Shown: positions 8,601-22,729 of the stretch, piece after piece
Position numbering within the stretch: the first letter of the stretch is position 1
How the letters are laid out: the number at the start of each line of letters is the position of its first letter
Source: a virus
DNA length: 33,999 nucleotides
IMG/VR virus record: IMGVR_UViG_3300020470_002062
Coordinates: 1-33,999 of that record
Strand: one strand, 5' to 3'
The notes under the pieces: generated by a model
Seen by the model: only the letters and a program-made list of their open reading frames with translations
The model's database searches: none
Told to the model about the DNA's origin: nothing
Translations under genes and position numbers: made by a program

Positions 8601-9854
8601 TGTATTCCATTAACTTTAGCTGGAACTGGATTACCAACTGTAGTATCTACAAGTAATGCTGGTACATCAGTTGAAATAGGTGCTGCTCAAAGTAATAATG
8701 CAATTGATGGTATCTTTGGTCTTGATGTATTCCAGATGGATGCATCAGGTGGTAGTATACTATACGTAGGATATGCAGGTAAATTATATGATACAACTGG
8801 TGCTACAACTCGTGGTACCTATGGCATTATTGAATATGCTGCTAGTACACCAGATATTGTCGTTGCATCTAACTCTTCAGGATATATTATTGGTGACGAG
8901 TTAGAACTTAGTAGCTTTAGTTTCAGAGGTGGTGTTGATGCTTACCAAGGTATTTCAGGTAATACTTATGGTATGTACTATGCAGTTGGTGGTAAAGAAA
9001 CACAGTCAGGTGATACTAATGGTGTAGTATTAGTATGCAACACAGAACAAACACTCAATGGTCAGACATCGTGGACATCATATGATGATCATCCATACTC
9101 AATTACATCATTTGTAATTAATAATAGTAATGGTGCTGACGTTGTAAAAGATTTACGTTGGGGATTCGTTGAGGTACCTGGAGTTAATAAGACCAAGGCA
9201 GCAATGAATGATTCCTCATATGATACAGGTAATGATCATAACAGATTTAATGATCGTCTGTGTTGGAATGATAGATTGTGGGTTACTTGCGCTATCACTA
9301 ACCAGTACTCACAGATAGACACATATATTGTTGAGATTACATCAGCAAACTTAACCATTAGATCTGATGGTGGTAATAATAATGTACAGAATAAAACACC
9401 AGATGCTGCAAATATAACACGTGCTGGTAAGTTAAGCACTTCAGGTATCACAGATCCTGGTGGTATTGTCATCAATGGTCCTGAATTAGGAACTATAATG
9501 GTATCAGCAACCTCTGCTAACTCTGGTACTCCTAATGATCGTCAACTGTTGACGTGTAAGGTACCAATGGATATGAGTAAATCAGATTCAAGTTACAGAG
9601 ATGTAGGATCACAGTTTGTTTACTGGGATGAGCCAGACTTCTCTCTCAATATGCAGGGTAAATTCTTGATGAATGCTGAGTTTAATGTAAATGACTCCAG
9701 TAACTACAGAGATGGTACTAGGTTTATATGGACAACAGATGGTATGGTTGGAGAACTAATGGCATTTGCGTCACCAACTCAACTTAATGACATTTCTGGA
9801 GTGGGCACATTTACAAGTGTTACAAAAGACTTGCAAGCATACAAGCAATCGTGA
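5628..9854 (+). CDS. Large virion protein with beta-propeller-like repeats
   Basis: 1408 residues, one of the two longest genes here. Recurrent units have the form D..GNIYTVGWT... Y..C.DK...FQWDYRF (about residue 905) and GEVYTLNGERN...IAKFGSIGSISWQY (about residue 50), the pattern of SBBP-type beta-propeller repeats in which a short strand pair ends in a Trp. No signal peptide or enzyme motif is seen. Its place at the end of the fibre cluster suggests a fibre or adhesin subunit that binds the host surface. The repeat assignment is by pattern only; the precise role is unknown. Confidence 0.75.
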   Translation: MPLFAAKGMSASGGGGNFYTLVEAKRANLNDASYRKPSGMFDVATSSSGEVYTLNGERNPLTGLYNAVIAKFGSIGSISWQYTISSAKNCYPCALGCYQGDNSVYIIVMETTDLSGANNYNAKRANETNSTMMDSTHDAVYRFIKFTSSGTRVWENTYSSSNSTLYPCAISQVTQGTADHSYSNVFTNRNHDSNIWHSLVGAPDLQLNKVVAKPGRTSPTDNEDWNHETSNNVISSSDSIAVLGVTDTGYRSYEMYSTDGPHFGGRPQATSNICMDDANLCFYVLVAANATTTDMSRSRSTMNILKVPLTGVSINAREIVFPGGWDQNAKLTMDSDGKLLIPWTSTTKERQYHNQSLSTASGDVQYYRFYDTGDPNNATSENLGSYIRYDFTATDFDLTTYATGAVAPPKVCKVEPEPTAEGTTYEYVTTAGLQPSPNAELGGANIGRDNVGDGHKKTGRYNNFVQLHKSNKGTGALDWVRTFFAIPHQARRDQSNNTQDGAGSSSWDAPTVNTPDIMVADTKVFSNGIYYVGNVVYNTGGLPNASTYTNKNSYIGWVAKINFDGTIDYIREVRSLVDNVSEYTNNNPGDFPPYYYQAEQNGGVLLDSINFDAFNNMIITGRHVSDSNVGASGHFIDNIVFKLPHNGDLIGPIVVRDLFPPVGTTDLRLRRFTYTPATLVRCWEDVIFDANINYNTAGRETYKILRCCALWNDNHNWQTTPTSVGATTTLSNYQALLGISPDRLVTLDTGTFSGRLLWQTPTTFLQLDTTGTRAWDRAERRQSSNIFLQTFEESDAASMIEAQASCPAYLYVDQTVNTDNAQTDFDAVSYTKLLGDGSLEDSRIKKQEHPNGIITVSQYYDGSGLRKQLLSRHTPTGGIETRMYDTGFNTYPKDVVIDEIGNIYTVGWTADTGGGNNYGVGYVTCYDKTMTFQWDYRFVNNDSTSLVDAADNFQIHCAAVTVDGANTAKLFIGGHYTSVNAGTPTQHGIVSCIPLTLAGTGLPTVVSTSNAGTSVEIGAAQSNNAIDGIFGLDVFQMDASGGSILYVGYAGKLYDTTGATTRGTYGIIEYAASTPDIVVASNSSGYIIGDELELSSFSFRGGVDAYQGISGNTYGMYYAVGGKETQSGDTNGVVLVCNTEQTLNGQTSWTSYDDHPYSITSFVINNSNGADVVKDLRWGFVEVPGVNKTKAAMNDSSYDTGNDHNRFNDRLCWNDRLWVTCAITNQYSQIDTYIVEITSANLTIRSDGGNNNVQNKTPDAANITRAGKLSTSGITDPGGIVINGPELGTIMVSATSANSGTPNDRQLLTCKVPMDMSKSDSSYRDVGSQFVYWDEPDFSLNMQGKFLMNAEFNVNDSSNYRDGTRFIWTTDGMVGELMAFASPTQLNDISGVGTFTSVTKDLQAYKQS

Positions 9855-9884
9855 TAAGATGCTGACAAAGCATTAACTGTCACA

Positions 9885-10148
9885 ATGGGAGCACACTCAA
9901 GTCCAAGTCTACATCGCAATCCATCTAATAATGATATGATTGATTCACGTGAGGTCTCACTGACGAGAGACGAGCGAGGTTATTTAAAAGAACTTCTCAG
10001 GACATACAAGTTTATGTTTGCAGAACAGATGACTGCACAGCGATTTAGTATGACCACTGATATGACAAAGAGGCAACAATATATGGATCTGCAACAGAGT
10101 TATGCAGAACATATCCTTACAAAATTGTTAGCTAGTGAAGCACAATGA
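9885..10148 (+). CDS. Small conserved-looking protein of unknown function
   Basis: 87 residues, not recognised. From about residue 28 it is strongly helical and charged (TRDERGYLKELLRTYKFMF), then MTKRQQYMDLQQSYAEHILTKLL. It overlaps the next gene by four bases (ATGA) and sits between the fibre genes and a short basic protein. No membrane segment. Could be an assembly or chaperone factor for the fibres, but that is only a positional guess. Confidence 0.65.
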   Translation: MGAHSSPSLHRNPSNNDMIDSREVSLTRDERGYLKELLRTYKFMFAEQMTAQRFSMTTDMTKRQQYMDLQQSYAEHILTKLLASEAQ

Positions 10149-10342
10149 CCAAGGAGTTATCATTTAATGAAATTCGTGCAGTTTCATCTGCACTGGTGTC
10201 CCTTAGGATGGAACAGGTAAATAAAATTGAAGAAGAATTCGACGTTGACTTTGGTCGGATCAACGATGCTTTGTACGCAATGGCAAAACCACTTGAGAAA
10301 GTGGCACACTACAGGGTTGGCAAAGACCTGGATGCATTATAA
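10145..10342 (+). CDS. Small acidic helical protein of unknown function
   Basis: 65 residues, not recognised. It begins with ELSFNEIRAVSSALVSLRMEQV, followed by an acidic IEEEFDVDF segment, and is predicted helical. Start overlaps the stop of the upstream gene (ATGA), so the pair is probably translationally coupled. Confidence 0.6.
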   Translation: MTKELSFNEIRAVSSALVSLRMEQVNKIEEEFDVDFGRINDALYAMAKPLEKVAHYRVGKDLDAL

Positions 10343-10361
10343 TAGGTGAGTCCTCAGAAAA

Positions 10362-10775
10362 ATGCTACTTATGACAGTTGCTGCAACCACCTCTGCCAAG
10401 AAGACTCGTTCTACTCGTAAGAGGAGCACAAGCACAACACCACGTAAGGCAAGCACTACTAAGAAGACTGTAACAAAAGCAGCAGTCGTCACTAAATACT
10501 CACAACCTGTTGAGATAAAGAAAGTGACTGAACCGACTCCTGCACCAGTTGTTACGAAAGAAGCTCCAACTCGTCCAGAGAAACCTAATCTCACTTATGT
10601 GGATTATGTTGAAGATGCTAAGGTTCGCTGGGCTATTCATTCTTATGAAACCCGTGAATTGTGGTCTGACATTGTTAAGGTTTATAACAAGTCAGTTCCT
10701 GTTGTTCAGAGTGCTATCACTTATGTGAAGGACTCTTATGATAAAGCATTCAACACTGAGACAGAGAAGAAGTAG
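10362..10775 (+). CDS. Lys/Thr-rich basic small protein
   Basis: 137 residues. The N-terminal half (about 8-50) is a low-complexity Lys/Arg/Thr/Ser tail, SAKKTRSTRKRSTS-type, followed by a Pro-rich linker (PTPAPVV, PTRPEKP) and a C-terminal helical part with WAIHSYETRELWSDIVKVY. The basic tail would suit nucleic-acid binding or packaging with DNA; that is inference. An in-frame ATG three codons later (10371) is an alternative start. The stop is directly followed by a promoter element and a strong terminator, so this gene ends its transcription unit. Confidence 0.6.
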   Translation: MLLMTVAATTSAKKTRSTRKRSTSTTPRKASTTKKTVTKAAVVTKYSQPVEIKKVTEPTPAPVVTKEAPTRPEKPNLTYVDYVEDAKVRWAIHSYETRELWSDIVKVYNKSVPVVQSAITYVKDSYDKAFNTETEKK

Positions 10776-10830
10776 ACAGTCTACGTAGTGTCCACTAAGC
10801 ACCCCAAACGGGGTGCTTTTTTTGTATAAT
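10772..10830 (+). promoter_or_regulatory. Element-dependent promoter A (CAGT...TATAAT) for the 10925 operon
   Basis: Upstream element GTAGACAGTCTACGTAGTGT, with CAGT at 10777, and TATAAT at 10825-10830; the distance is 48 bp. The position where a sigma70 -35 should lie (about 10802) is CCCCAA, inside a terminator stem. The same element and spacing recur at seven other sites in the window. Probably a phage middle-type promoter using an activator. Confidence 0.6.
10798..10823 (+). terminator. Rho-independent terminator (8-bp stem, T7)
   Basis: Perfect stem AGCACCCC / GGGGTGCT with loop AAAC, followed by seven Ts. It ends the 10362 gene's transcript and lies entirely between the upstream element and -10 box of promoter A. 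Nearly identical to the terminator at 23264-23289, which has loop ACAC. Confidence 0.9.
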
Positions 10831-10836
10831 GAATAT

Positions 10837-10906
10837 GTTGAGCAATTACTCAACTGCTGCTAGTCCCTTTTGGTGGTTTCAGACTAGGAGGCGATAGGAA
10901 ACCACC
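10837..10906 (+). other. Structured 5' leader with two hairpins
   Basis: Downstream of promoter A's -10, the predicted transcript start is followed at once by a 6-bp hairpin GTTGAG/CTCAAC (10837-10854). A second, stronger hairpin follows, GGTGGTTTC/GAAACCACC (9 bp, 10872-10880 with 10898-10906), whose 17-base loop carries AGGAGG (10886-10891) and which is followed by a pyrimidine run. The ATG of the first gene is at 10925. It could be an RNA-stability or translation-control leader, an attenuator, or a small RNA. Confidence 0.45.
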
Positions 10907-10924
10907 TTTCTTTTATGAGGTTCA

Positions 10925-11095
10925 ATGGACTATCCTAAAGTCAACAAGCACACCAGAGCACCACGTGACGGTAGATACATTGTCTGTCCTCATTGTGAAG
11001 GTGCTTACAGAGTCTACAACTTTGCTTTCAGTTCATTAACTTGTATGTACTGCAAGCGTGATGTAGACAAATTCAACTTTGGAGTTGTAGCCTAA
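10925..11095 (+). CDS. Zinc-ribbon small protein
   Basis: 56 residues. Two Cys pairs, CPHC near residue 21 and CMYC near residue 42, about 17 residues apart, form a classic four-cysteine zinc ribbon. The rest is basic at the N-terminus (KVNKHTRAPRDGRY). Such ribbons bind nucleic acid or protein partners; a regulatory or adaptor role is likely but unproven. First gene after promoter A and its structured leader; its stop overlaps the next start as TAATG. Confidence 0.75.
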   Translation: MDYPKVNKHTRAPRDGRYIVCPHCEGAYRVYNFAFSSLTCMYCKRDVDKFNFGVVA

Positions 11096-11337
11096 TGACA
11101 CTTGAAGATCAACTACTTGCTGACCTTGCCTATTCTATCAAAGTAATAGGATGTAATGAGGAAGAAGCAAATGAACTCATCCAAGCAGCAGACAATACTG
11201 GATGTAATGTTGAGTATTTCTGTGAGGAGTTCATCTTTGGTGGTCAGGACGTGATGAAGTATCACGATGATGATTACCTTGACATCGAAGGATTCAATGC
11301 TTATCACGGAATCTATTTTGAGGAAGTATCTGAATGA
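11095..11337 (+). CDS. Acidic small protein of unknown function
   Basis: 80 residues, strongly acidic with many Asp/Glu and two Cys. It begins TLEDQLLADLAYSIKVIG and ends FNAYHGIYFEEVSE. Not recognised. Overlaps both neighbours (TAATG at the start, ATGA at the end), so it is embedded in a coupled operon. Confidence 0.65.
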   Translation: MTLEDQLLADLAYSIKVIGCNEEEANELIQAADNTGCNVEYFCEEFIFGGQDVMKYHDDDYLDIEGFNAYHGIYFEEVSE

Positions 11338-11621
11338 AGTTCTACTATCAGCATTATGACAATGCCAAGTATAATACTGTGAATGCACAGGCATTGTACA
11401 AGCAGTATCCACCTACATTTGAAGAGACTGAACGCAAGTGGAAAATGAACTTGTTTAAGTCACGTAAATGTAGGAATGCTAGGAACGTATGGAAGATTCT
11501 TAACTGGAGTCTACCACAAGAAGAATACGAACAGTTACGATATCGTGCTGTTACCTTCCCTGTAGTGTATGATAAGTGGGGATTCAAGCGTAAAGGTGAT
11601 TTTCTTGCTGGTGCAATGTAA
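11334..11621 (+). CDS. Basic small protein of unknown function
   Basis: 95 residues, basic and aromatic-rich: QHYDNAKYNTVNAQALYKQ, then KWKMNLFKSRKCRNARNVWK. Not recognised. It starts in the stop of the acidic gene and its stop shares a base with the next ATG (TAATG). Confidence 0.6.
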   Translation: MKFYYQHYDNAKYNTVNAQALYKQYPPTFEETERKWKMNLFKSRKCRNARNVWKILNWSLPQEEYEQLRYRAVTFPVVYDKWGFKRKGDFLAGAM

Positions 11622-12181
11622 TGGATGGAGTTAAGAACTTATTCTCTGTCCCCATATTTGAAACTCAGGTTGACATCACTCAAGTGGTGTTGCCTGAGTC
11701 TTCTTATGAGTACAATTCAGAGGTTAACTGGTCATTTGGTAGACAAGAATGTCCTGAGCAGACCTATGATTATCTTCATAGTCTGATCTCTCCTTTCTTA
11801 TTGAGCTATGATCCATATATTAATTGTACATTCACAAATATATGGAGGAATAGGTATGAGGAGAAAGACTATCAAGGTTATCACATACACGCACAGAGTC
11901 AATGGAGTTACATAATATATGAGACTGTTGACTCTAAGACAGTATTATACAATCCTGCTTGGATGTTAATACAAAACCATATGCCAGGTACCAAACTGTT
12001 CCCAGTATGCTATAATACTGAACTGAAAGCTGGTAGTATGATAGTTTTCCCATCGTGGATTGCACATCACGTGAAACACGGTAATGTAGGGACAACTATC
12101 AGTGGTAATATACTATTAGAGTATGATACTGCTCATCTACAACTCCACGAACAGTTCCAAGATCAACACCAATTTCACTGA
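11621..12181 (+). CDS. Putative 2-oxoglutarate/Fe(II) oxygenase
   Basis: 186 residues with the shape of the phage 2OG-Fe(II)_Oxy_5 type. FTNIWRNRY (71-79) precedes the first iron-ligand region HIHAQSQWSYIIY (88-100), and the distal His lies in PSWIAHHVKHGN (145-154) after the strand GSMIVFP. In this fold the ligands bind Fe(II) and a distal basic residue binds 2-oxoglutarate; I do not see a clear distal Arg here, so activity is less sure. Substrate unknown; phage members are candidates for protein, nucleotide or sugar hydroxylation. A second homologue lies 170 bases downstream. Confidence 0.7.
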   Translation: MDGVKNLFSVPIFETQVDITQVVLPESSYEYNSEVNWSFGRQECPEQTYDYLHSLISPFLLSYDPYINCTFTNIWRNRYEEKDYQGYHIHAQSQWSYIIYETVDSKTVLYNPAWMLIQNHMPGTKLFPVCYNTELKAGSMIVFPSWIAHHVKHGNVGTTISGNILLEYDTAHLQLHEQFQDQHQFH

Positions 12182-12366
12182 TGTTAAGCACAAAATACAG
12201 ACTAGAACTCACTGATATCTGTTGTCGTATGATTACAGATGATGGAATAGAAGTCACACTTGAAGAGAGAATTTGGATGAACAAACTATGCGAGCATAAT
12301 AATACTGCTAAAGCATTAGTTGAATCTTTACTATGTCCTTATAAGTATGAGCCACGCACCGATTGA
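12181..12366 (+). CDS. Small protein of unknown function between two oxygenases
   Basis: 61 residues, not recognised; contains three Cys and an acidic middle (TDDGIEVTLEERIWMNKLCE). Starts in the stop of the upstream oxygenase and overlaps the start of the next by about 20 bases. Gene order suggests co-expression with both oxygenases. Confidence 0.6.
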   Translation: MLSTKYRLELTDICCRMITDDGIEVTLEERIWMNKLCEHNNTAKALVESLLCPYKYEPRTD

Positions 12367-13042
12367 ACCAAACTTCAGGGTTATAAACATACTGCCTACA
12401 TCTATATTTGAGGCAGAGGTACCACCTGATCTGTATGCTGATCTAGTATCCATAGTCACTAACTGTGACTGGGATGAATCAACATACCTTAAGAACTTAG
12501 AAAAATATCAGAGTGGTGCTGTTAGTACAGATTTACTAAAGCAGTATCGTGATAGTACTGAAGTAGAAGACAGACAACAAGGTATACTACACAGTAACTT
12601 GTTTGATAATTTTCGTGTGTGGTGTGAGAATCAGTTAAACCAACTGTTACCATACATTGTTAAGGAACCATTTGCATCAGATATGGAGATAAATGCTGCG
12701 TGGATCAACAGGTATAGACTAGGTGAGAACCTAGTTGCACACTGTCATCCTTGGGCTGTTGTGTCTGGTACTGTGTTCTTAACTGGCAACAGTGGTGATG
12801 TACAGTTCGTTAAGAGAAATGCATACAGTGATTTGAAGGGACTGGGTATTACAAGATATAGCGATGCATTTACATATCCTGTATCACCTGGTAAGATGGT
12901 GATATTCCCGTCATCATTAAGTCATAGGGTGTTACCCAACGAATCAGACGCAATGCGTTACACTCTAGCATTTAATGCGATGCCCACAACAGTTTATGAT
13001 GGACATACTGTCCAGTTCATAAAGCGTCACAAGCCAACGTGA
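12347..13042 (+). CDS. 2-oxoglutarate/Fe(II) oxygenase (2OG-FeII_Oxy_5 type)
   Basis: 231 residues from the ATG at 12347 (the frame is open to a TTG at 12320, but ATG is preferred). The family signature is clear: INAAWINRYRLGENLVAHCH (115-134) with HCHPWAVVSGTVFL, then SPGKMVIFPSSLSHRVLPNE (180-199) giving the distal His, and R204 in DAMRYTLAFN as the likely 2-oxoglutarate-binding Arg. A soluble enzyme that would hydroxylate an unknown substrate at the expense of 2-oxoglutarate and O2. It is last in the operon from 10925; a new promoter follows immediately, its upstream element lying inside this gene's 3' end. Confidence 0.85.
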   Translation: MSHAPIEPNFRVINILPTSIFEAEVPPDLYADLVSIVTNCDWDESTYLKNLEKYQSGAVSTDLLKQYRDSTEVEDRQQGILHSNLFDNFRVWCENQLNQLLPYIVKEPFASDMEINAAWINRYRLGENLVAHCHPWAVVSGTVFLTGNSGDVQFVKRNAYSDLKGLGITRYSDAFTYPVSPGKMVIFPSSLSHRVLPNESDAMRYTLAFNAMPTTVYDGHTVQFIKRHKPT

Positions 13043-13066
13043 CTTTCCTCTCATTTCCTCTATAAT
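13008..13066 (+). promoter_or_regulatory. Element-dependent promoter G for the 13092 operon
   Basis: Element CAGTTCATAAAGCGTCACAA, with CAGT at 13013 inside the oxygenase 3' end, and TATAAT at 13061-13066: spacing 48 bp. No -35 hexamer at the expected place (CGTGAC). The ATG at 13092 follows an AAAGGA ribosome-binding site. Confidence 0.6.
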
Positions 13067-13091
13067 AACAGAGTAAACACAAAAGGATCTT

Positions 13092-13463
13092 ATGAATTCT
13101 TATCTTGAACCAGTTGCTGCTTCAAAAGAGTGCACAGTTGATGAAATTCTGCCTCTTGAAGTCAGGGTGTATACTTGGGCAGAGACCCTAGTACATTGCC
13201 TTGAGCAACAGTACAAGCATCAGTACCCTAATTCAAGCGATCCTGTAACGTTTAGCATCACCACTGGTAAGAAGTACCTTAAAATTGTACAGAACCGTGG
13301 TGGTGTTCACGCCTTTATAGATAGGAAAACTGGTCAGGTCTACAAACCAGCATCTTGGAAATCACCAGCAAAGCACGTTAGATATGATCTCCGCATCATA
13401 CGTGAACGTGAGTTGTGTTTTGCAAATGCTGATTGGGCTGGCGGTTACTTATACTTAAGGTGA
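13092..13463 (+). CDS. Protein of unknown function
   Basis: 123 residues; start chosen for the AAAGGA site seven bases upstream. The C-terminal part has a beta-rich region, YLKIVQNRGGVHAFIDRKTG then QVYKPASWKSPAKHVRYDLR, resembling small phage proteins that end in a K.ASWK.PA..VRY..R pattern. I cannot name a function. First gene of the operon that leads to the endonuclease-like and methyltransferase genes. Confidence 0.7.
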   Translation: MNSYLEPVAASKECTVDEILPLEVRVYTWAETLVHCLEQQYKHQYPNSSDPVTFSITTGKKYLKIVQNRGGVHAFIDRKTGQVYKPASWKSPAKHVRYDLRIIRERELCFANADWAGGYLYLR

Positions 13464-13469
13464 TTCGTG

Positions 13470-13724
13470 ATGATTGAACTGGGTGATCACATCGTAACTC
13501 CTGACGGTACTTCTGGTACCGTCATTTTTATTAGTCAGGAGTATTTGACCTTGCAAATGGACGGTGAACGTGATCCAGACAATCAGACTGGGTTAAACTT
13601 TACACTCCACGATTACTCTAAGAAATCATTTGCACATCCCTTAATTTACAGGAGCGTATGGAATGAATGTACCATCACAAAGCGAACTAACTCATCTACA
13701 ACTCCAAGCGATGATGAGGGATAA
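13470..13724 (+). CDS. Small SH3/KOW-like beta-barrel protein, function unknown
   Basis: 84 residues from ATG 13470 (an in-frame GTG lies one codon earlier); AAGGTG upstream fits as ribosome-binding site. The N-terminus IELGDHIVTPDGTSGTVIFI looks like a small KOW/SH3-like barrel (G...V..PDG..G.V). The C-terminal 20 residues are Ser/Thr-rich and overlap the next gene. No further function supported. Confidence 0.6.
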   Translation: MIELGDHIVTPDGTSGTVIFISQEYLTLQMDGERDPDNQTGLNFTLHDYSKKSFAHPLIYRSVWNECTITKRTNSSTTPSDDEG

Positions 13725-13845
13725 TAATTTCCCACCTTCAGAGATATTATATCTTGGTCTTGAAGATGGTGAACATTATTATCTAATCAATGGAGAGCAT
13801 CGTGTTCCAGCATCTAAAATAGAAGATCTAGAACGCTGCGATTGA
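13663..13845 (+). CDS. Small protein of unknown function
   Basis: 60 residues; AGGAG about eight bases before the ATG supports the start although it overlaps the upstream gene by 62 bases. Contains ILYLGLEDGEHYYLINGEHR, a small beta-hairpin-like core. Not recognised. Confidence 0.55.
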   Translation: MNVPSQSELTHLQLQAMMRDNNFPPSEILYLGLEDGEHYYLINGEHRVPASKIEDLERCD

Positions 13846-13869
13846 CCCTACAACCCCTCTGAAATCATT

Positions 13870-14391
13870 ATGACTAAGTATTCCCCTGAACAAGCAAAAG
13901 AACTCTTCAAGAAGCATTTTGAAGGGTTATATGAGGTCTGTGAAGACCAAGGATGGGGTGATCCATTCTCTTATGCTAGGTCACGTGAAATTCATATGGC
14001 TATTGAATTAGGTCACGAGGTATCTGAAGACTATTCAGGTTCAGATGCTACTGATGACAAGGGAGAAGTAGAGTACAAGAGTACAATAGGTGATAAGATC
14101 TCTGCAACATACAATGGTATCTCTGTTAAGGATACTTGGGAGGAGCAGGATGAGTATTTGCGCAGTGAGAAACTACTTAAGTACCATAAACATTACTATG
14201 CACGCTATGAAGGAGCGCAGATTGTAGAATTATGGAGCTTGGGTGGTGATACTGTGTACAATTACCTTGCACCTAGGTTAGAGAAGAAGTTCAAGAAGCT
14301 TAAAGCAAGAGCTAAGCAACCCGCAGATCCACGTTTAGGTGATAATATATGCGCAGGATACATTAAAAAGCACGCATATAAGATCAGATGA
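13870..14391 (+). CDS. Putative restriction endonuclease-like protein (PD-(D/E)XK-like)
   Basis: 173 residues, not matched to a named enzyme. The features that matter are SGSDATDDKGEVEYKST (56-72), which contains acidic residues (D59, D62, D63) followed by E68-Y69-K70, the spacing and form of a PD-(D/E)XK nuclease core, then ISATYNGISV and a WEEQDEYL helix. The C-terminus is basic (KKFKKLKARAKQ) and ends in PADPRLGDNICAGYIKK. Its stop overlaps the start of a DNA methyltransferase (ATGA), the usual order of a type II restriction-modification pair. Size suits a small type II endonuclease. Inference rests on one motif plus context; an alternative is a methyltransferase partner or DNA-binding protein. 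Confidence 0.5.
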   Translation: MTKYSPEQAKELFKKHFEGLYEVCEDQGWGDPFSYARSREIHMAIELGHEVSEDYSGSDATDDKGEVEYKSTIGDKISATYNGISVKDTWEEQDEYLRSEKLLKYHKHYYARYEGAQIVELWSLGGDTVYNYLAPRLEKKFKKLKARAKQPADPRLGDNICAGYIKKHAYKIR

Positions 14392-15338
14392 GAGATATTA
14401 TACTATATGGTGACTGTCGTGACACTCTCAAGACTATAAGTGAACCAGTTAGAATGTGTGTCACATCTCCACCATACTACGGTCTACGTGACTATGGTGG
14501 AGAAGATAGTCAAATTGGTCAGGAACAAACACCTGACGAATACATACAAGCATTGGTAGAAGTATTCAGGAGTGTACGTGATGTGCTCACAGATGATGGA
14601 ACTTGTTGGGTTAATATTGGCGATAGTTACTATAATTACAGACCTGGAAGAGGACAAGGACTGGTTAAACAAACAGTCTCAAATAGTAAGCAAGACTTAC
14701 CAGATGTGTGTCCTCGCAGAGGAAATAGACTCGACGGAATCAAAGAAAAAGATTTGATAGGCATACCTTGGATGCTTGCATTTGCACTACGTGCTGATGG
14801 ATGGTATCTAAGGCAGGATATCATATGGCATAAACCTAATCCAATGCCTGAGAGTGTACGTGATCGATGTACTAAGTCTCACGAGTACATATTTTTATTG
14901 AGCAAGTCTCGCAAGTATTATTATAACAATGAAGCTATTAAAGAACCTGCTAAAGACTGGGGTACGAGAGATAGGACAAACGGTAAGTATCACAATAAAG
15001 GGACTGGACTACAGCCACACTCTGGTCTTTCAAAGTCTTATCCCACGAAGAATAAGCGTAGTGTCTGGTCAGTCACTAACAAACCGTACAAGGGAGCACA
15101 TTTTGCTACATATCCACCTGACTTGATTGAACCCTGTATTAAAGCAGGATCAGAGCGAGGTGACATAGTATTAGATCCCTTTATGGGATCAGGTACCACT
15201 GCAATGGTTGCCAAGTCATTAGGCAGGGATTACATAGGGTGCGAACTGCACGAGAACTATGGTAGTCTCATTCAGCAACGCATTCAGTCTCAGTGTGCCA
15301 GTGCACAAAGTGTCACACGCTTTCTCCACGGTGGGTAA
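14388..15338 (+). CDS. Site-specific DNA amino-methyltransferase (beta class)
   Basis: 316 residues. Catalytic motif IV is TSPPYYGLRDYGG (26-38) near the N-terminus and the S-adenosylmethionine motif I is LDPFMGSGTTAMVA (262-275) followed by GRDYIGCE near the C-terminus: the IV-before-I order of beta-class enzymes. SPPY is typical of N4-cytosine but also occurs in N6-adenine enzymes, so the modified base is open. The region between (about 90-240) holds IPWMLAFALRADGWYLRQDI and a likely target-recognition segment. It would methylate phage or host DNA. Overlaps the endonuclease-like gene upstream; the 3' end contains the element of promoter H. Confidence 0.9.
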   Translation: MRDIILYGDCRDTLKTISEPVRMCVTSPPYYGLRDYGGEDSQIGQEQTPDEYIQALVEVFRSVRDVLTDDGTCWVNIGDSYYNYRPGRGQGLVKQTVSNSKQDLPDVCPRRGNRLDGIKEKDLIGIPWMLAFALRADGWYLRQDIIWHKPNPMPESVRDRCTKSHEYIFLLSKSRKYYYNNEAIKEPAKDWGTRDRTNGKYHNKGTGLQPHSGLSKSYPTKNKRSVWSVTNKPYKGAHFATYPPDLIEPCIKAGSERGDIVLDPFMGSGTTAMVAKSLGRDYIGCELHENYGSLIQQRIQSQCASAQSVTRFLHGG

Positions 15339-15351
15339 TATGTCCTATAAT
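15293..15351 (+). promoter_or_regulatory. Element-dependent promoter H for the 15378 gene
   Basis: Element CAGTGCACAAAGTGTCACAC, with CAGT at 15299 in the methyltransferase 3' end, and TATAAT at 15346-15351: spacing 47 bp, one less than the usual 48. No -35 hexamer at the expected place (TCTCCA). Confidence 0.6.
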
Positions 15352-15377
15352 AGTCAGGTACCAAACAAAGATTGACA

Positions 15378-15641
15378 ATGCGTCTCTCAACCACTGACGG
15401 CTCTGCGACTCTTGACTACTATCCTGTTCGTATGCCTCTAGGTGACATCTCTCACAAGTATCTTCTCAAGATCATCAACTTTGGTCGTAATGGACAACGC
15501 AAGGAGTTTGTTACAAAAGATGACTTCAAGACAGAAGTAACTCAGGCAACTGAAAACTTCGGTTATAATGTCATCGACTTCAATATTGAACCACAGTTAG
15601 GTAATCCACTTGTTTCGGGAACACCATACGCATTTGCATAA
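15378..15641 (+). CDS. Small protein of unknown function
   Basis: 87 residues from ATG 15378 (an in-frame TTG two codons earlier is less likely). Sequence includes TTDGSATLDYYPVRMPLGDI, a helix-rich middle FVTKDDFKTEVTQATENFGY, and a Gly/Pro C-terminus. It is alone between promoter H and a terminator, so it forms a monocistronic unit. Not recognised. Confidence 0.7.
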   Translation: MRLSTTDGSATLDYYPVRMPLGDISHKYLLKIINFGRNGQRKEFVTKDDFKTEVTQATENFGYNVIDFNIEPQLGNPLVSGTPYAFA

Positions 15642-15662
15642 ATGTGAGATTCCCTCTATAAT
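15634..15662 (+). promoter_or_regulatory. Sigma70-type promoter nested in a terminator
   Basis: TTGCAT (15634-15639), 17 bp, TATAAT (15657-15662). The -10 lies on the left arm and loop of the terminator hairpin at 15651-15682, so a transcript started here would begin within the right arm and could not form the hairpin. It would serve the GTG-started gene at 15687. Confidence 0.5.
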
Positions 15663-15682
15663 TAATAGAGGGATCTTTTTTT
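15651..15682 (+). terminator. Rho-independent terminator (9-bp stem, T7)
   Basis: Stem TCCCTCTAT / ATAGAGGGA with loop AATTA, then TC and seven Ts. It ends the 15378 gene. Confidence 0.85.
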
Positions 15683-15686
15683 AACT

Positions 15687-15896
15687 GTGTCTACTAAGAA
15701 AATCAAAGTGTTGCTCTCACAAGATGAAATCCGAACCATCACAGATGCTCTCCAGTGTCTCACACAACGAGAGCAACAGTCCACAGAGTCAGTCAACGGA
15801 GTTTGTTGTAGTACCCTGCATTCCAAACTCTGCGAACACCTTCAACGTGACTATGAACGAATCTCAGCAGGATACTACAATGAGGAACTCGACTAG
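15687..15896 (+). CDS. Small protein of unknown function (GTG start)
   Basis: 69 residues; GTG is the only start available in the frame after the terminator. Helical: STKKIKVLLSQDEIRTITDA then HLQRDYERISAGYYNEELD, with three Cys. Not recognised. Overlaps the start of the next gene. Confidence 0.55.
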   Translation: MSTKKIKVLLSQDEIRTITDALQCLTQREQQSTESVNGVCCSTLHSKLCEHLQRDYERISAGYYNEELD

Positions 15897-16248
15897 GCTT
15901 CAACTCGAAGAACTTATTATGGAATACATCGGTGACGATGTAAACTGTACGAGTTATGATTTCATTGCTGATCTTAAGCAGTCATTATATGAACTGCAGG
16001 ATCATTACCAAACACATTTGACTCGCATCAATGCTATTATAGCATATTTGCACGATGATTGCTCACCTGACTTGTTCGTCAAGAAAGGGAACAGACTCAC
16101 TGTGGAGAATGGTAAGGTAGCTGTTGAGGTTACTGATCGTAAGGAAGACTACAATGATTTCTGGTATAACAGTGAGGATGTGATGGAGTATTCTTATGAA
16201 TCACCCAACACACCTGAGTATGGACAAGACCCTAGTCAGGATATCTAA
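15880..16248 (+). CDS. Acidic protein of unknown function
   Basis: 122 residues from ATG 15880 (AGGA upstream). The frame stays open upstream to an ATG at 15724, but that stretch is low-complexity Ser/Asn and overlaps the 15687 gene, so the shorter form is preferred. Helix-rich N-terminus (RLQLEELIMEYIGDD, LKQSLYELQDHYQTHLTRIN), acidic C-terminus. Not recognised; TAATG overlap with the next gene. Confidence 0.6.
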   Translation: MRNSTRLQLEELIMEYIGDDVNCTSYDFIADLKQSLYELQDHYQTHLTRINAIIAYLHDDCSPDLFVKKGNRLTVENGKVAVEVTDRKEDYNDFWYNSEDVMEYSYESPNTPEYGQDPSQDI

Positions 16249-16451
16249 TGCCCAGAACTAAGAAAAAATGGGAAGTGAACGTGCTTTCCAAGATACACCA
16301 CAAGATGCAATGGACTAAGTTCCACGCATCCAGTGTAGACCCTGCAACTGCTGTTAAACAAGCATTTGCTAAGTATCCTGACCTTACGACAATCCTTATA
16401 AATCTAGAGGAGTTAAGCCCTACCAAGGACACCGATGAAGGATCAGAATAG
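16248..16451 (+). CDS. Small basic protein of unknown function
   Basis: 67 residues: PRTKKKWEVNVLSKIHHKMQ, then SVDPATAVKQAFAKYPDLTT. The N-terminus is basic and the C-terminus acidic. Starts in the upstream stop and overlaps the next gene by 17 bases. Not recognised. Confidence 0.55.
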   Translation: MPRTKKKWEVNVLSKIHHKMQWTKFHASSVDPATAVKQAFAKYPDLTTILINLEELSPTKDTDEGSE

Positions 16452-16635
16452 TATAACTGATAAAGAATCTGCTAAGGACAAATGGTTCAGAGCACATTCT
16501 ATATTCCTTGAGTCATTGCATAAACCAGACAATGTACTCAGGTCGTGTGCACATAATCAGAAGTGTTACAATGAGTTGATGGAAATACGTGATCAAATGT
16601 TAGAACTAGCTAAAACCCTTCAAAACCCGCACTAG
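16435..16635 (+). CDS. Small helical protein of unknown function
   Basis: 66 residues, mostly helical: SAKDKWFRAHSIFLESLHKP and NELMEIRDQMLELAKTLQNP. Its stop codon lies in the loop of the terminator hairpin. Last gene of this plus-strand unit; not recognised. Confidence 0.6.
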   Translation: MKDQNSITDKESAKDKWFRAHSIFLESLHKPDNVLRSCAHNQKCYNELMEIRDQMLELAKTLQNPH

Positions 16636-16645
16636 CGGGTTTTTT
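16622..16645 (+). terminator. Terminator between convergent genes
   Basis: Stem AAAACCCGC / GCGGGTTTT (9 bp) with loop ACTA and six Ts on the plus strand. It separates the plus-strand unit from the convergent minus-strand oxygenase. On the minus strand the T run is only four, so it is stronger for the plus strand. Confidence 0.85.
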
Positions 16646-16646
16646 A

Positions 16647-17381
16647 TTAGTTACTCTTAAAGTAACTGATCATTTGCTCACTTGGTTTGATACACTGTAG
16701 TGCTGCGTCCTCAGTGTCAGCATCCATACGTGGTAGTCTGCTAGCCCACGTGGTAGCAATATATTTCCTACCACTCAAGGGAGGATTGCCACGATGCACG
16801 TGTGTGTATGATGCTGGAAATATTACTGTCTTACCCTTCTCTGGTTTAATCCTGATGCCTTGAGCAATGAATTCAGTCTCACCACCATCTACGTCATTTA
16901 AGTATGTGATGAAGACAAACTCTCTGTCTTGGACAAAGTAACCAGCATTATCATAGTGCCAAGCGTGGAAACCTTCACCTGGATTTGTTATTTGTACCTT
17001 AGCAGCACTCATCCAGAAGTCACCACGTGCTAATTGACTGAATTCTTCTAGGTATTGTCTGGTTGCTAGTTTAGACCATCCACTTAGCAGTGTATTCCTA
17101 ACGCTAGGTGATGTCCCTTCAGTCATCCAAAAGAACCAGTCATTTCTATTATACTTCTGCGACTCCAGATTACTACCAGTTACTTCATTATTGATTTCAC
17201 CTTGGTATAATTGGTCAGCGTATGCCATAAGCATATCACAGAACTCAGGAGGCACGTGGTTAGGATACTCACGTATAAATGTCTCGTGGTCTTTACTGTG
17301 CTTGATTACCTTACGCTCTGGTCTCATTGGTTCACGTAACCGTCGGTGTTCAGTTACCATAGTATCGTAGTCTCTATCCAT
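16647..17381 (-). CDS. Prolyl-4-hydroxylase-like 2-oxoglutarate/Fe(II) oxygenase
   Basis: 244 residues from the ATG at 17381; upstream in-frame ATG (17396) and TTG (17405) starts are possible, but 17381 overlaps the upstream stop and has GGTGGT before it. The iron site is H142-Y-D144 in GFHAWHYDNAGY and distal H196 in THVHRGNPP, with K206 in SGRKYIATTW as the 2-oxoglutarate-binding residue: the full HxD...H...K set of the P4H family. It would hydroxylate a protein side chain or similar substrate, not identifiable from sequence. One of few minus-strand genes here, in an apparent two-gene unit with a small Cys-containing protein. Confidence 0.85.
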   Translation of the reverse strand: MDRDYDTMVTEHRRLREPMRPERKVIKHSKDHETFIREYPNHVPPEFCDMLMAYADQLYQGEINNEVTGSNLESQKYNRNDWFFWMTEGTSPSVRNTLLSGWSKLATRQYLEEFSQLARGDFWMSAAKVQITNPGEGFHAWHYDNAGYFVQDREFVFITYLNDVDGGETEFIAQGIRIKPEKGKTVIFPASYTHVHRGNPPLSGRKYIATTWASRLPRMDADTEDAALQCIKPSEQMISYFKSN

Positions 17382-17553
17382 CTTGGTGACCACCATCAAA
17401 TACAAATGTCATAGCTTTAGTTCTGTCATCAAATGGAACTATTTTGCCTGAATCACAACGCACGTGCCATTTATCACCGATCTGTGTTATAATGTGTGAG
17501 AACATTTGAAACTCTAGATCTTCCAATGATTTTTCACAGTCCTTGCAACTCAT
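17374..17553 (-). CDS. Small Cys-containing protein of unknown function
   Basis: 59 residues. The N-terminus has SCKDCEKS (a CxxC pair) and a third Cys in KWHVRCDSG, then MTFVFDGG. Possible partial zinc or redox site. Its end overlaps the oxygenase start by eight bases on the same strand, and its start is 38 bases from the divergent pur operon. Confidence 0.6.
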   Translation of the reverse strand: MSCKDCEKSLEDLEFQMFSHIITQIGDKWHVRCDSGKIVPFDDRTKAMTFVFDGGHQDG

Positions 17554-17591
17554 AAATAGTCCTCGCGTGCTTACTACTAATTATACCACAT

Positions 17592-17756
17592 ATGGATCTA
17601 CCTATCAACGATTCAGAACTAGAGACGATCATTAAATCATTAACACTGGGAGGTGATACAGCACTCTACAACAAATTAAAACTAGTAAGTGAGTTGAAAG
17701 CACTAGGAAAACCATACAAGAAGATATTAAGAGAACAGTACAACATCGTTTGCTAA
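17592..17756 (+). CDS. Small protein preceding purN
   Basis: 54 residues: DLPINDSELETIIKSLTLGG, then YNKLKLVSELKALGKPYKK. Helical and basic in the second half. Not recognised, but the codon pattern, tight three-base spacing to purN and a divergent promoter region argue it is a real leader gene of the purine operon. A weak AT-rich -10-like TTATACC lies just upstream. Confidence 0.65.
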   Translation: MDLPINDSELETIIKSLTLGGDTALYNKLKLVSELKALGKPYKKILREQYNIVC

Positions 17757-17759
17757 ACT

Positions 17760-18284
17760 ATGCGACTCGGTATTATGTGTTCTGGTAACGGAACAAACTT
17801 TGAGAACATTGTTAGAACTTGTACAAAAGATGAAGTTGTGTTGATGATACACAACAAAAAGAAATGTGGTGCTGCTAAGAGAGCAGACAAATTAGGTATA
17901 CCACATTGTCATATCAGTCACGAAGATGAAGACCAGATCATCCAATTAATGCAAGCGTGGAGAGTAGAGCTCATCATACTTGCAGGATGGATGAGAATAG
18001 TATCACCTAAGCTCATAAATGCATTCTCTGAACGCATAATTAATGTACATCCGTCATTACTACCAAAGTATAAGGGATTACACGCAGTAGAACAGGCATT
18101 AGAGAGTGGAGATACGGAAACTGGAGCTAGCGTGCACTTTGTTGATGAAGGACTAGACACTGGTCAGGTCATCATACAACAATCAGTACCTATTGAACCT
18201 GATGATACGGTTGAATCATTGACTCGTAGAATACAATTGATGGAGTATTCTATTTTACCTGTTGCAATTAATGAACTAAGATAA
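17760..18284 (+). CDS. purN: Phosphoribosylglycinamide formyltransferase
   Basis: 174 residues. Transfers a formyl group from 10-formyltetrahydrofolate to GAR in step three of purine synthesis, in the cytoplasm. The phosphate-binding start is SGNGTNFENI (8-17); the catalytic triad Asn95, His97 and Asp133 is visible in INVHPSLLPKYKG and VDEGLDTGQVI. It lacks the C-terminal tail of the bacterial enzyme (212 residues in E. coli), a compact phage form. Followed by purC with a shared base (TAATG) and purM. Phage purine genes are thought to supply nucleotides for genome replication when host supply limits. Confidence 0.95.
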   Translation: MRLGIMCSGNGTNFENIVRTCTKDEVVLMIHNKKKCGAAKRADKLGIPHCHISHEDEDQIIQLMQAWRVELIILAGWMRIVSPKLINAFSERIINVHPSLLPKYKGLHAVEQALESGDTETGASVHFVDEGLDTGQVIIQQSVPIEPDDTVESLTRRIQLMEYSILPVAINELR

Positions 18285-18997
18285 TGGAACATTTAATCAC
18301 ACCAATTAATACTGGCAAGGTTAAGACTGTCTTCGATGTTGATGGAGATGCTCAGAGAGTATACATCCGATATGAAGATAGAATCACAGCATTTGAGGGT
18401 GAAAGAATTGATTACCCTGAGAATAAGGGATCAATTTGTTGTCTCATCTCAGCATTATTATTTGAAATGTGTGAGAAGAATGGTATTAAGACTCATTTTA
18501 TTGAGCTACCATCACTCAACACAATGTTGTGTCGTAAGTTGACCATCATACCATTAGAAGTGATTGTACGTAACATTGCTGCTGGTAGTATTGTCAAGAA
18601 CACTAACATCAATGAAGGACAATTAATAAACCCACCGATCGTAGAATACTTCCTTAAAGATGATGCTAAGGGTGATCCATTACTAACAATGGATAGAGTA
18701 CGATTGATGGGTATTGATCCTGAGCCATTAAAAGAGCGTGCACTTGCAGTTAACTATCAATTACAATCATTGTTCACACTAATGGGCATTGATTTAGTTG
18801 ATTTTAAACTAGAGTTTGGCTTTGATGCTCACGGTGATCTATTTTTAGGTGATGAACTATCACCAGATAATATGAGATTGTGGAAGAAGGATACTAAAGA
18901 AAGATTTGACAAAGATTTGTTCAGAAAGGATGAGGGTGATGTTGTTGAAGCATATCGGAAAATATTAATGCAACTACGTCAATTTGTACCACAATGA
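18284..18997 (+). CDS. purC: Phosphoribosylaminoimidazole-succinocarboxamide synthase
   Basis: 237 residues, full family length. Joins aspartate to CAIR with ATP to give SAICAR. Seen: TGKVKTVFDVDGD (10-22) as the ATP-binding start, ITAFEG, EVIVRNIAAGSIVK around residue 95, and FLGDELSPDNMRLWKKD near 185. All key family segments are present. It lies between purN and purM with one- and four-base overlaps, so the three are translationally coupled. Confidence 0.96.
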   Translation: MEHLITPINTGKVKTVFDVDGDAQRVYIRYEDRITAFEGERIDYPENKGSICCLISALLFEMCEKNGIKTHFIELPSLNTMLCRKLTIIPLEVIVRNIAAGSIVKNTNINEGQLINPPIVEYFLKDDAKGDPLLTMDRVRLMGIDPEPLKERALAVNYQLQSLFTLMGIDLVDFKLEFGFDAHGDLFLGDELSPDNMRLWKKDTKERFDKDLFRKDEGDVVEAYRKILMQLRQFVPQ

Positions 18998-19878
18998 AGT
19001 ATCAGGTAGATATAGATGCAGGTAATGCATTTGTAGAGCGATTAAAAGAGAAAGCACCTAGTATTGGTGGATTTGGTGGTGCATTTAGAATACCTAGTGG
19101 GTATGAGAAACCTGTCTTAGTATCTGGTGCTGATGGTGTTGGTACTAAGATTAATATTGCAAGAGTATTCAATGATTACACAACCATAGGACAAGATCTT
19201 GTGGCTATGTGTGTCAATGATGTCATCTGCACTGGTGCTACACCATTATATTTCCTAGATTATATCTCTACCAAGAAAATAGATGCTAGTGTAGCAGATA
19301 TTATGGTGGGCATCCTTAGAGGATGTGAGATAGCAGAGATGGAGTTACTAGGAGGAGAAACAGCAGAGCATTGGAGGCAGAGTGAGTATGATCTTGCTGG
19401 TTTCTGCACTGGTATTGTAGAAGAGAATGAAATACTAGATGGAAGACTGATCAAACCAGGTGATAAGATCATTGGTCTACCTAGTAGTGGTCTTCATAGT
19501 AATGGTTATACTTTGATCAATGATATGTTGTGGAGGCAGAAGATATATTACAGAGATCTGCCTGAGTTATTAACACCAACAACAATCTATTGGCCACAAG
19601 TTAAAGAATTAATGAATGAGATACCTATACTTGGTATGGCTCATATTACTGGTGGTGGTATACCTGAAAACTTACCACGTTGTTTACCAAGAGGATTAAA
19701 TGCTGATGTAGAATATACTTGGGAAAGACCAGAGATATTCAATAAGATACAACAAGCAGGAGATATTGAAGAGAATGAAATGAGAAGAGTATTTAATCTT
19801 GGTATTGGATTTTGTTTAGTTGTGCCTAATGAAATCAATGATTTAGATGATAATCAAATTGGTGTTGTGACATTATAA
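18994..19878 (+). CDS. purM: Phosphoribosylformylglycinamidine cyclo-ligase (AIR synthetase)
   Basis: 294 residues against about 345 in bacteria. Closes the imidazole ring of FGAM with ATP to give AIR. Family segments: DIDAGNAFVERLK (6-18), VLVSGADGVGTKI (42-54), DLVAMCVNDVICTGA (68-82), LLGGETAEHW (119-128), GLPSSGLHSNGYTLI, ITGGGIPENLPR, FNLGIGFCLVVP. The shortening is spread over several loops, with catalytic regions kept. Final gene of the pur cassette, followed by a hairpin terminator. Confidence 0.96.
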   Translation: MKYQVDIDAGNAFVERLKEKAPSIGGFGGAFRIPSGYEKPVLVSGADGVGTKINIARVFNDYTTIGQDLVAMCVNDVICTGATPLYFLDYISTKKIDASVADIMVGILRGCEIAEMELLGGETAEHWRQSEYDLAGFCTGIVEENEILDGRLIKPGDKIIGLPSSGLHSNGYTLINDMLWRQKIYYRDLPELLTPTTIYWPQVKELMNEIPILGMAHITGGGIPENLPRCLPRGLNADVEYTWERPEIFNKIQQAGDIEENEMRRVFNLGIGFCLVVPNEINDLDDNQIGVVTL

Positions 19879-19905
19879 GACCCCTGCTACGATGTAACAG
19901 GGGTC
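19879..19905 (+). terminator. Hairpin after purM (no T run)
   Basis: GACCCCTG / CAGGGGTC, 8 bp, with a further TAC/GTA pairing around a GAT loop. No run of Ts follows, so it may be a weak or factor-assisted terminator, or an mRNA 3' stabiliser. It begins right after the purM stop. Confidence 0.6.
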
Positions 19906-19941
19906 AGTGGGCGGTATTTAAACTGGACTATTCTGTTTTGT

Positions 19942-20112
19942 TTACCTTAACAACTCGCTGCATACTTGTCTGCAACTAGTCTCCGTACCATCATCGCAAT
20001 CAATTAAGCACTCAAAGTAATTGTTGATCATATCATCTGTATGATTGAGCTGATCTTCTGATTCTTTCCAACTTGCTAGTTGATTGAACGAGATGATATT
20101 ATGTTTGCTCAT
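19942..20112 (-). CDS. Small minus-strand protein of unknown function
   Basis: 56 residues: SKHNIISFNQLASWKESEDQ, then an acidic Cys-rich part ECLIDCDDGTETSCRQVCSE with four Cys. A GAGG ribosome-binding site lies about 10 bases upstream on this strand. Not recognised. It converges on the pur operon. A CATAAATA late-like motif lies about 76 bases upstream on the minus strand (20188-20195). Confidence 0.6.
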   Translation of the reverse strand: MSKHNIISFNQLASWKESEDQLNHTDDMINNYFECLIDCDDGTETSCRQVCSELLR

Positions 20113-20193
20113 TAACTTTAAACCTCACTAAGTGAACTACATAACAAAATGATTTGGGTACATCTTGTTGTTCCCTAATTCTACCACTATTTA

Positions 20194-20258
20194 TGTCAGA
20201 AAACACTGACAGAGACTAAGTACTTAACCTCTTGTAAAGGGGTATTTATACCGAGGTT
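20194..20258. promoter_or_regulatory. Cluster of inverted repeats upstream of the early-type promoter
   Basis: TGTCAG-AAAACA-CTGACA (20194-20211) and a nested repeat: AACCTC (20226-20231) pairing with GAGGTT (20253-20258), enclosing the near-palindrome GGTATTTATACC (20241-20252). The outer arm overlaps the -35 box at 20257, the position of a repressor operator. No regulator gene is identified. Confidence 0.4.
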
Positions 20259-20285
20259 TACACATCCCACTACCTATGGTATAAT
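20257..20285 (+). promoter_or_regulatory. Sigma70-type promoter for the small membrane-protein operon
   Basis: TTTACA (20257-20262), 17-bp spacer, TATAAT (20280-20285). Five of six bases at -35, all six at -10, optimal spacing. A host-recognised early promoter; the first ATG is at 20312. Confidence 0.75.
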
Positions 20286-20311
20286 ACACAAGTGAATCAA
20301 TCCTTTATTCA

Positions 20312-20398
20312 ATGCACCTGATCCTAACGCTACTTTGTATTGGTCTCATTGCACTTGCACTAATTTATTCAATCATCCAACATTACAACCCGCATTGA
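20312..20398 (+). CDS. Tiny membrane peptide
   Basis: 28 residues, almost entirely one hydrophobic helix (HLILTLLCIGLIALALIYSI) ending QHYNPH. First gene downstream of a sigma70-type promoter, two bases before the next gene's ATG. It would sit in the host inner or thylakoid membrane. Function unknown. Confidence 0.65.
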   Translation: MHLILTLLCIGLIALALIYSIIQHYNPH

Positions 20399-20400
20399 TT

Positions 20401-20658
20401 ATGAGTTTTAGTAATAGAAAGTTAACAAAACATCAGATTAAAACACGATGGTATTATTGGTTTTGGTCTATTTGTGCGGTGGCGGTCGTCGGCGGTCAGG
20501 TCTATGTTGGTTCTGGCTACAGACAAATGTCCAAATCATTTGATAGAATCATAGATACAATTGTCGTCACATTGGAATTAGAAACAAATGGATACCCTTT
20601 CAGGTATGCACCACGTGAAATGCCATTGCACGATGATCATCCAATGGTAATTAAATGA
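20401..20658 (+). CDS. Single-span membrane protein of unknown function
   Basis: 85 residues from ATG 20401 (the frame extends upstream only to a TTG inside the previous gene). A basic N-terminus (NRKLTKHQIKTRW) precedes a membrane helix at about 17-36 (WYYWFWSICAVAVVGGQVYV), then GSGYRQMSKSFDR and a soluble tail. The positive-inside rule puts the N-terminus in the cytoplasm. ATGA overlap with the next gene. Function unknown. Confidence 0.75.
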   Translation: MSFSNRKLTKHQIKTRWYYWFWSICAVAVVGGQVYVGSGYRQMSKSFDRIIDTIVVTLELETNGYPFRYAPREMPLHDDHPMVIK

Positions 20659-20741
20659 TTACTACACTGTTTCCATTCTTATTTGCCATCGCATTAGTAT
20701 CAGCGATGCACTACACTTGGCCAATTAAATATAGACGCTAA
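20655..20741 (+). CDS. Tiny membrane peptide
   Basis: 28 residues: ITTLFPFLFAIALVSAMHY then a polar basic tail IKYRR. One hydrophobic helix. Overlaps neighbours at both ends (ATGA, TAATG). Function unknown. Confidence 0.65.
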   Translation: MITTLFPFLFAIALVSAMHYTWPIKYRR

Positions 20742-21016: not shown

Positions 21017-21017
21017 A

Positions 21018-22318: not shown

Positions 22319-22324
22319 TACAGT

Positions 22325-22714: not shown

Positions 22715-22729
22715 GACCGTTCTTTTTTT
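22702..22729 (+). terminator. Rho-independent terminator (9-bp stem, T7)
   Basis: Stem GAACGGTCT / AGACCGTTC with loop CTA and seven Ts. The stop codon of the 22523 frame falls in the loop. Confidence 0.9.

What the first reader, a model, noticed from the sequence alone, without database searches (positions are those of the whole stretch)
13870..15338. Endonuclease-like gene coupled to a DNA methyltransferase
A 173-residue protein with D59/D62/D63 and E68-Y-K70 in a PD-(D/E)XK-like arrangement overlaps by four bases a beta-class methyltransferase. That is restriction-modification order inside a lytic phage genome. It could attack host DNA or rival phages. Together with CATG absence it prompts the question whether the phage nuclease, or a host system, targets CATG; if the phage methylase protected CATG, avoidance would not be needed, so the target may differ.
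Basis: partly seen in the sequence, partly recalled or inferred. Interest (0 to 1): 0.75.

Follow-up and report, generated by a model that had tools for sequence, protein, structure and literature searches.

The report
Phage restriction enzyme protected by site loss
This ocean cyanobacterial virus carries a small PvuII-like DNA-cutting enzyme and appears to survive it not by marking its own DNA but by having removed every CATG, the likely target, from its genome, while related viruses that kept CATG carry a matching protective methylase.

Summary
The 173-aa ORF (13870-14391) is real, and the PD-(D/E)XK call is right. AlphaFold (pLDDT 93.6) plus Foldseek identify R.PvuII specifically (E 1.9e-6, Z 12.4), with D59/E68/K70 aligned to D58/E68/K70. 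The methyltransferase overlapping it (14388-15338) is not its partner: that gene occurs in hundreds of marine viral loci, most without the nuclease, and near-complete nuclease carriers lack it.

The real partner is elsewhere. Nuclease homologues fall into classes. 'LS' and 'IG' carriers encode a 184-aa adenine-type methylase (M2), usually overlapping the nuclease by 4 bp; CATG mostly remains, though depleted. 'LG' carriers (the window's lineage and a distant cyanomyovirus clade) have no M2 and no CATG: 0 of ~1,700 expected in 34 nuclease loci, and genome-wide in three 182-187 kb genomes (apart from contig ends). Thirteen complete isolates with neither gene keep CATG (0.66-0.75 of expectation in the five analysed whole). 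CATG is the only tetramer of 136 that separates the groups clearly, and its loss is synonymous.

Best explanation: a cyanophage Type II R-M pair targeting CATG, run in the window's lineage as a solitary enzyme made safe by site purging. Fold and correlations are shown; CATG cleavage, M2 specificity and role (host DNA degradation or rival exclusion) are inferred.

The parts
13870..14391 (+). P0001: PvuII-fold restriction endonuclease, LG class (DPRLGD), 173 aa, PHROG 35715 (unknown function)
   Evidence: AF2 pLDDT 93.6; Foldseek/VIA-align top hits all R.PvuII; hhalign collinear with PvuII, score 23.2 vs shuffled 13.0 +/- 2.5, 1 of 200 as high; dN/dS about 0.1-0.26 within the family; PHROG
14038..14079 (+). 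Catalytic segment G57-S-D59-A-T-D62...E68-Y-K70, equivalent to PvuII G56-N-D58-A-V-D61...E68-L-K70
   Evidence: alignment; G57, D59, D62, E68, Y69, K70 invariant in 22 homologues
14107..14127 (+). TYNGISV (residues 80-86), invariant, in the region of the PvuII His83-His85 recognition segment (inferred from order; not an exact column match)
   Evidence: PvuII His84 contacts the guanine of its site (PMC4705667)
14326..14343 (+). DPRLGD (residues 153-158): D-P-R aligned to PvuII N141-P142-K143, followed by the class-specific residues (LG[DYH] / LS / IG)
14388..15338 (+). P0002: beta-class N6/N4 DNA methyltransferase (PF01555), overlapping the nuclease by 4 bp; judged NOT the cognate modification enzyme
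1..33999 (.). CATG-free genome segment (0 sites; about 93 expected by dinucleotide shuffles, 137 by second-order Markov)
   Evidence: synonymous avoidance: His CAT before G 0/41, before other bases 58/89
29126..30940 (+). gp6 baseplate wedge, used as phage backbone marker
   Evidence: PHROG 219, E 4e-202

Best explanation
The gene encodes a PvuII-type Type II restriction endonuclease (fold shown; dimer inferred) whose site is most likely CATG (inferred). In related cyanophages it is half of a phage-borne restriction-modification pair: the other half is M2, a 184-aa adenine-type DNA methylase, usually overlapping the nuclease by 4 bp, which presumably methylates the same site. In the window's lineage and in a second, distant cyanomyovirus clade M2 is missing, and self-protection comes from having eliminated every CATG in the genome, largely by synonymous change. 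During infection the enzyme would then cut any CATG-containing DNA, that is the cyanobacterial chromosome and co-infecting phages, without needing a methylase. The overlapping beta-class methyltransferase is an independent orphan MTase. Role (host DNA breakdown versus rival exclusion) is inferred and not distinguished here.
For: (1) Fold: pLDDT 93.6; all 12 Foldseek hits at E<=1e-3 are R.PvuII; PvuII Z 11-12.4 over 134-146 residues, next NhoI/Eco15I at 9.9; catalytic residues aligned and invariant. (2) Three-way pattern. LG class (nuclease, no M2): CATG 0/1713 expected in 34 loci, some of them overlapping. Whole genomes: 0 in 182 kb of G038; G020 has one, within 45 nt of the contig end; G070 has twelve, all in its last 2.4 kb. 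LS/IG class (nuclease with M2): CATG mostly present but depleted, pooled 0.12 (LS) and 0.31 (IG with M2 in the locus). Neither gene: 13 complete isolates, CATG ratio 0.66-0.75 in the five analysed whole (ratios from the printed counts). (3) M2 absent from 17/17 LG records (up to 187 kb), present in 12 of 13 LS/IG records, absent from 13/13 non-carriers (Fisher p 1.5e-7, not corrected for relatedness). Among 50,697 phage records the close M2 homologues (78-84% id) are in exactly the six records that hold the nuclease. (4) Two backbones: the window clade (gp6 >=74%; CATG 0 in all its loci) and a clade with gp6 only about 39% identical to the window's (80/80 loci CATG-free); the nuclease was found wherever the contig reaches its position. 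(5) CATG is the one tetramer of 136 that clearly separates nuclease-only from nuclease-free genomes (gap 0.51, next 0.14). (6) Of 139 ORFs shared by three CATG-free genomes, five are missing from all five non-carriers and the nuclease is by far the strongest match. (7) Purge is synonymous: His CAT before G is 0/41, 0/213, 0/215, 0/208 in CATG-free phages, 0.76-0.87 in non-carriers. (8) Many Prochlorococcus genomes lack R-M systems (PMC8262939), which weakens host restriction as the cause.
Against: No cleavage or methylome data; CATG as target is inferred from absence. Some LS-class phages that have M2 are also CATG-free in the stretches seen (for example L117 0/61, L138 0/59), so M2 does not force retention. 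Other palindromes (CCGG, GCGC, CGCG, TCGA, GTAC) are also absent from some cyanophages with no known cause. LG members within each clade are not independent, so there may be as few as one or two independent site-loss events; the nuclease tree does not resolve whether LG is one clade. Hosts of the IMG/VR phages are not known. Four IG loci lack M2 in the locus; P-SSM2 has it about 7 kb away, and one 31-kb record has none.
Confidence: 0.77

Rival explanations
1. CATG loss was driven by host CATG restriction (an NlaIII/CviAII-like system), and the PvuII-like nuclease is incidental.
For: Site avoidance against host R-M is a known phage strategy (PMC6286503); other palindromes are purged in cyanophages without an identified phage nuclease.
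Against: 13 non-carrier cyanophage isolates without M2 keep CATG; many Prochlorococcus lack R-M; two unrelated backbones share the CATG-free state together with this nuclease class and no M2. Host genomes could not be searched here.
Confidence: 0.14
2. The adjacent beta-class methyltransferase is the cognate modification enzyme.
For: Four-base overlap in the window; P-TIM68 also has a 79% homologue just upstream of its nuclease.
Against: At least 600 loci carry this MTase family and nearly all of the 80 best lack the nuclease nearby; near-complete LG genomes G020, G038, G070 have no PF01555 gene; adjacency not conserved in the closest relatives.
Confidence: 0.04
3. The nuclease is modification-dependent (like NhoI/Eco15I) or a structure-specific resolvase, unrelated to CATG.
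For: NhoI/Eco15I (Z 9.9) and Hjc resolvases (Z 7.6) are the next structural matches.
Against: PvuII is first by Foldseek and Z and aligns collinearly; linkage to the M2 methylase and the CATG pattern would be unexplained.
Confidence: 0.05

Closest known systems
R.PvuII (Type II, CAGCTG; PDB 1PVI, 1F0O)
   Same: Fold over nearly the whole chain, catalytic D/E/K, size (157 vs 173 aa), order of elements
   Different: About 19-24% identity; recognition residues N141-P-K replaced by D153-P154-R155 plus a four-residue insertion; CAGCTG is not the purged site, since close carriers keep some; the partner in relatives is a TaqI/EcoRI-like adenine-type methylase, whereas PvuII sites are protected by m4C
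CviAII restriction-modification system of chlorella virus PBCV-1
   Same: A virus-encoded restriction-modification pair at CATG (PMC7248222)
   Different: Eukaryotic algal virus that methylates its CATG sites; homology to these proteins not tested here
Solitary restriction enzyme PacI of Pseudomonas alcaligenes
   Same: Restriction enzyme without methylase, its survival explained by a genome that lacks its sites (PMC3488263)
   Different: Eight-base site (own knowledge) in a bacterium, against a four-base site expected about 600-700 times in a phage genome; fold not compared
T4-type host DNA degradation nucleases
   Same: Phage nucleases that spare the phage and destroy host DNA (own knowledge)
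   Different: T4 distinguishes self by modified cytosine; here self is distinguished by absence of the site (inferred)

Membership tests
PvuII-type PD-(D/E)XK Type II endonuclease | PvuII fold | tested here: met
PvuII-type PD-(D/E)XK Type II endonuclease | Catalytic D...E-x-K conserved across homologues | tested here: met
PvuII-type PD-(D/E)XK Type II endonuclease | Significant full-length sequence similarity to PvuII | tested here: inconclusive
   hhalign E 0.005 but probability 7%, 1 of 200 shuffles as high; HMMER profile search of PDB finds no PvuII
PvuII-type PD-(D/E)XK Type II endonuclease | Mg2+-dependent cleavage at a defined palindrome | not testable with these tools
   CATG inferred from genome statistics only
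Type II restriction-modification system | Cognate MTase (M2) in the same genome as the nuclease | tested here: not met
   For the LG class: no M2 in 17 records nor in the window. Met in LS/IG relatives
Type II restriction-modification system | M2 is a DNA adenine methylase | tested here: inconclusive
   PHROG 799 DNA methyltransferase 3e-34, PF13651 0.0012 (below cut-off), SNPPF motif, top fold hit M.TaqI but model pLDDT only 66
Solitary restriction enzyme with site-free genome | No cognate MTase and no recognition site in the genome | tested here: inconclusive
   Met if the site is CATG; the site itself is unproven

The most novel reading that the evidence does not exclude
Two lineages of cyanophages carry a methylase-less restriction enzyme as an infection weapon and achieve immunity by purging a four-base site from whole ~180-kb genomes, while sister systems keep the site and the methylase: a natural experiment in how an R-M pair and a solitary nuclease interconvert.
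Probability: 0.68. Interest if true: 0.87.

Novelty: new variant of a known kind. Interest (0 to 1): 0.82.

Why it matters
It would explain an extreme compositional feature (complete loss of CATG in two cyanophage clades) by a phage's own enzyme rather than by host defence, give a function to PHROG 35715, define a cyanophage R-M family with a compact methylase, and offer a testable mechanism for rapid host DNA degradation or phage-phage exclusion in the ocean. It also warns that site avoidance in phage genomes need not mean host restriction.

Tried and rejected
HMMER searches of PDB with the family profile: only chance hits. Pfam DUF6810 and NCBIfam YceI matches are sub-threshold. AGCT, CAGCTG and CCGG as target: AGCT and CAGCTG occur in close carriers; CCGG is also absent from non-carriers. 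A longer motif containing CATG: all flanks are depleted. A strictly absent site peculiar to the LS or IG class: none convincing. Dam-type (PF02086) and C5 (PF00145) methylases as partner: the former in carriers and in non-carrier P-SSM7 alike, the latter in none. Bacterial or plasmid origin: one 40% homologue in a Flavobacteriales MAG contig, none in plasmids. The 16-kb samples of non-carriers understate CATG (S-PM2 8/42 locally, 498/758 genome-wide), so whole genomes were used for the main comparison. For M2 only Foldseek was run on a partly low-confidence model.

Full report
Observation. The window is an IMG/VR record of 33,999 bases, with gp6 and gp25-like baseplate genes, 2OG oxygenases and purine genes as in T4-like cyanomyoviruses.

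What the protein is. Homologues were found in Prochlorococcus phages P-SSM2, P-SSM5 and P-TIM68 and in 334 IMG/VR stretches, and almost only in phages. The alignment keeps G57, D59, D62, E68-Y-K70, TYNGISV and DPR invariant. The AlphaFold model (pLDDT 93.6) matches R.PvuII first by a clear margin. A profile alignment to the PvuII sequence (verified against PDB) runs collinearly over 135 columns and aligns the catalytic residues; one of 200 shuffled PvuII sequences scored as high. The gene is under purifying selection.

The neighbour is not the partner. The beta-class MTase belongs to a family with at least 600 IMG/VR loci, nearly all of the 80 best without the nuclease nearby. It sits about 3 kb upstream of the nuclease, or is not in the stretch held, in the closest relatives, and three near-complete carriers have no PF01555 gene.

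CATG and nuclease classes. Homologues divide by the residues after the invariant DPR. Every LG-class locus is CATG-free. The LG class occurs in the window clade (gp6 at least 74% identical) and in a second clade whose gp6 is only about 39% identical to the window's (80 loci, all CATG-free). In that second clade the nuclease was found in 22 of 50 records; judged by contig coordinates, the other 28 end before the nuclease position, about 10-12.7 kb upstream of gp6. Whole-genome counts give 0 CATG in 182 kb of G038, and in G020 and G070 only at the extreme contig ends. Five non-carriers analysed whole keep 0.66-0.75 of expectation. CATG is the single tetramer that clearly separates the two sets. 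The avoidance uses synonymous codons: in the ORFs counted, CAT for His is never used before a G, and codons ending in C never precede Met.

The true partner. Loci of the LS and IG classes, which mostly still contain CATG, carry directly after the nuclease, typically with a four-base overlap, a conserved protein of about 184 aa (50 loci). It matches PHROG 799 DNA methyltransferase (3e-34), weakly EcoRI_methylase, has an SNPPF motif, and its partly low-confidence model's best fold match is M.TaqI. It is absent from all 17 LG-class records tested, present in 12 of 13 LS/IG records and absent from 13 complete non-carriers. Among 50,697 phage records its close homologues occur in exactly the six that carry the nuclease. 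In P-SSM2 it lies about 7 kb from the nuclease.

Interpretation. Nuclease plus M2: sites mostly tolerated but depleted. Nuclease alone: sites eliminated. Neither: sites present. This is what a CATG-specific R-M pair would produce, with the LG lineages relying on site loss. Which state is ancestral is not resolved. Host restriction does not predict that non-carriers without M2 keep CATG, and many Prochlorococcus lack R-M systems (PMC8262939). Remaining doubts are the lack of biochemical data, relatedness among LG members, a few M2-bearing phages that are also CATG-free in the stretches seen (L117, L138), and unexplained loss of other palindromes.

Role. Cutting at CATG would spare the phage and hit the host chromosome or competitors. 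Host DNA degradation within a few hours is reported for cyanophages (PMC7852597). No test here separates the two roles.

Known relatives. PvuII for the fold; PBCV-1 CviAII for a viral CATG system (PMC7248222); PacI for a solitary enzyme in a site-free genome (PMC3488263). Searches of the open-access library found no paper holding both cyanophage and CATG as words, and three holding cyanophage and PvuII, none apparently on this subject from title and abstract; the library is incomplete.

Noticed in passing
window 1-33999; L175-L177, L259-L270, L384-L483: CCGG is absent (0/14 in the window, 0/188 G020, 0/85 P-SSM2, 0/67 P-SSM7) in most marine cyanomyoviruses but normal in ACG-2014j, ACG-2014f and S-SKS1; cause unknown.
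   Followed up: partly
P-SSM2 and P-SSM7 (L404-L413, L441-L446): CGCG and GCGC are completely absent in both phages, which share Prochlorococcus NATL1A as recorded host.
   Followed up: no
L233, L237, L240, L248; L270; L238: Other cyanophages lack other tetramers: TCGA 0, GTAC 0/49 (S-RIM44 region), TGCA 1/56; each might mark another phage or host nuclease.
   Followed up: no
G070 185063-187493 (L393): All 12 CATG of this 187-kb contig lie in its last 2.4 kb, probably a chimeric contig end.
   Followed up: partly
window 17760-19878: Run of purine genes: phosphoribosylglycinamide formyltransferase, SAICAR synthase and AIR synthetase homologues.
   Followed up: no
L258 2811-3293: A 40% identical nuclease homologue (DPRLA) on a Flavobacteriales MAG contig, perhaps a phage sequence.
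   Followed up: no
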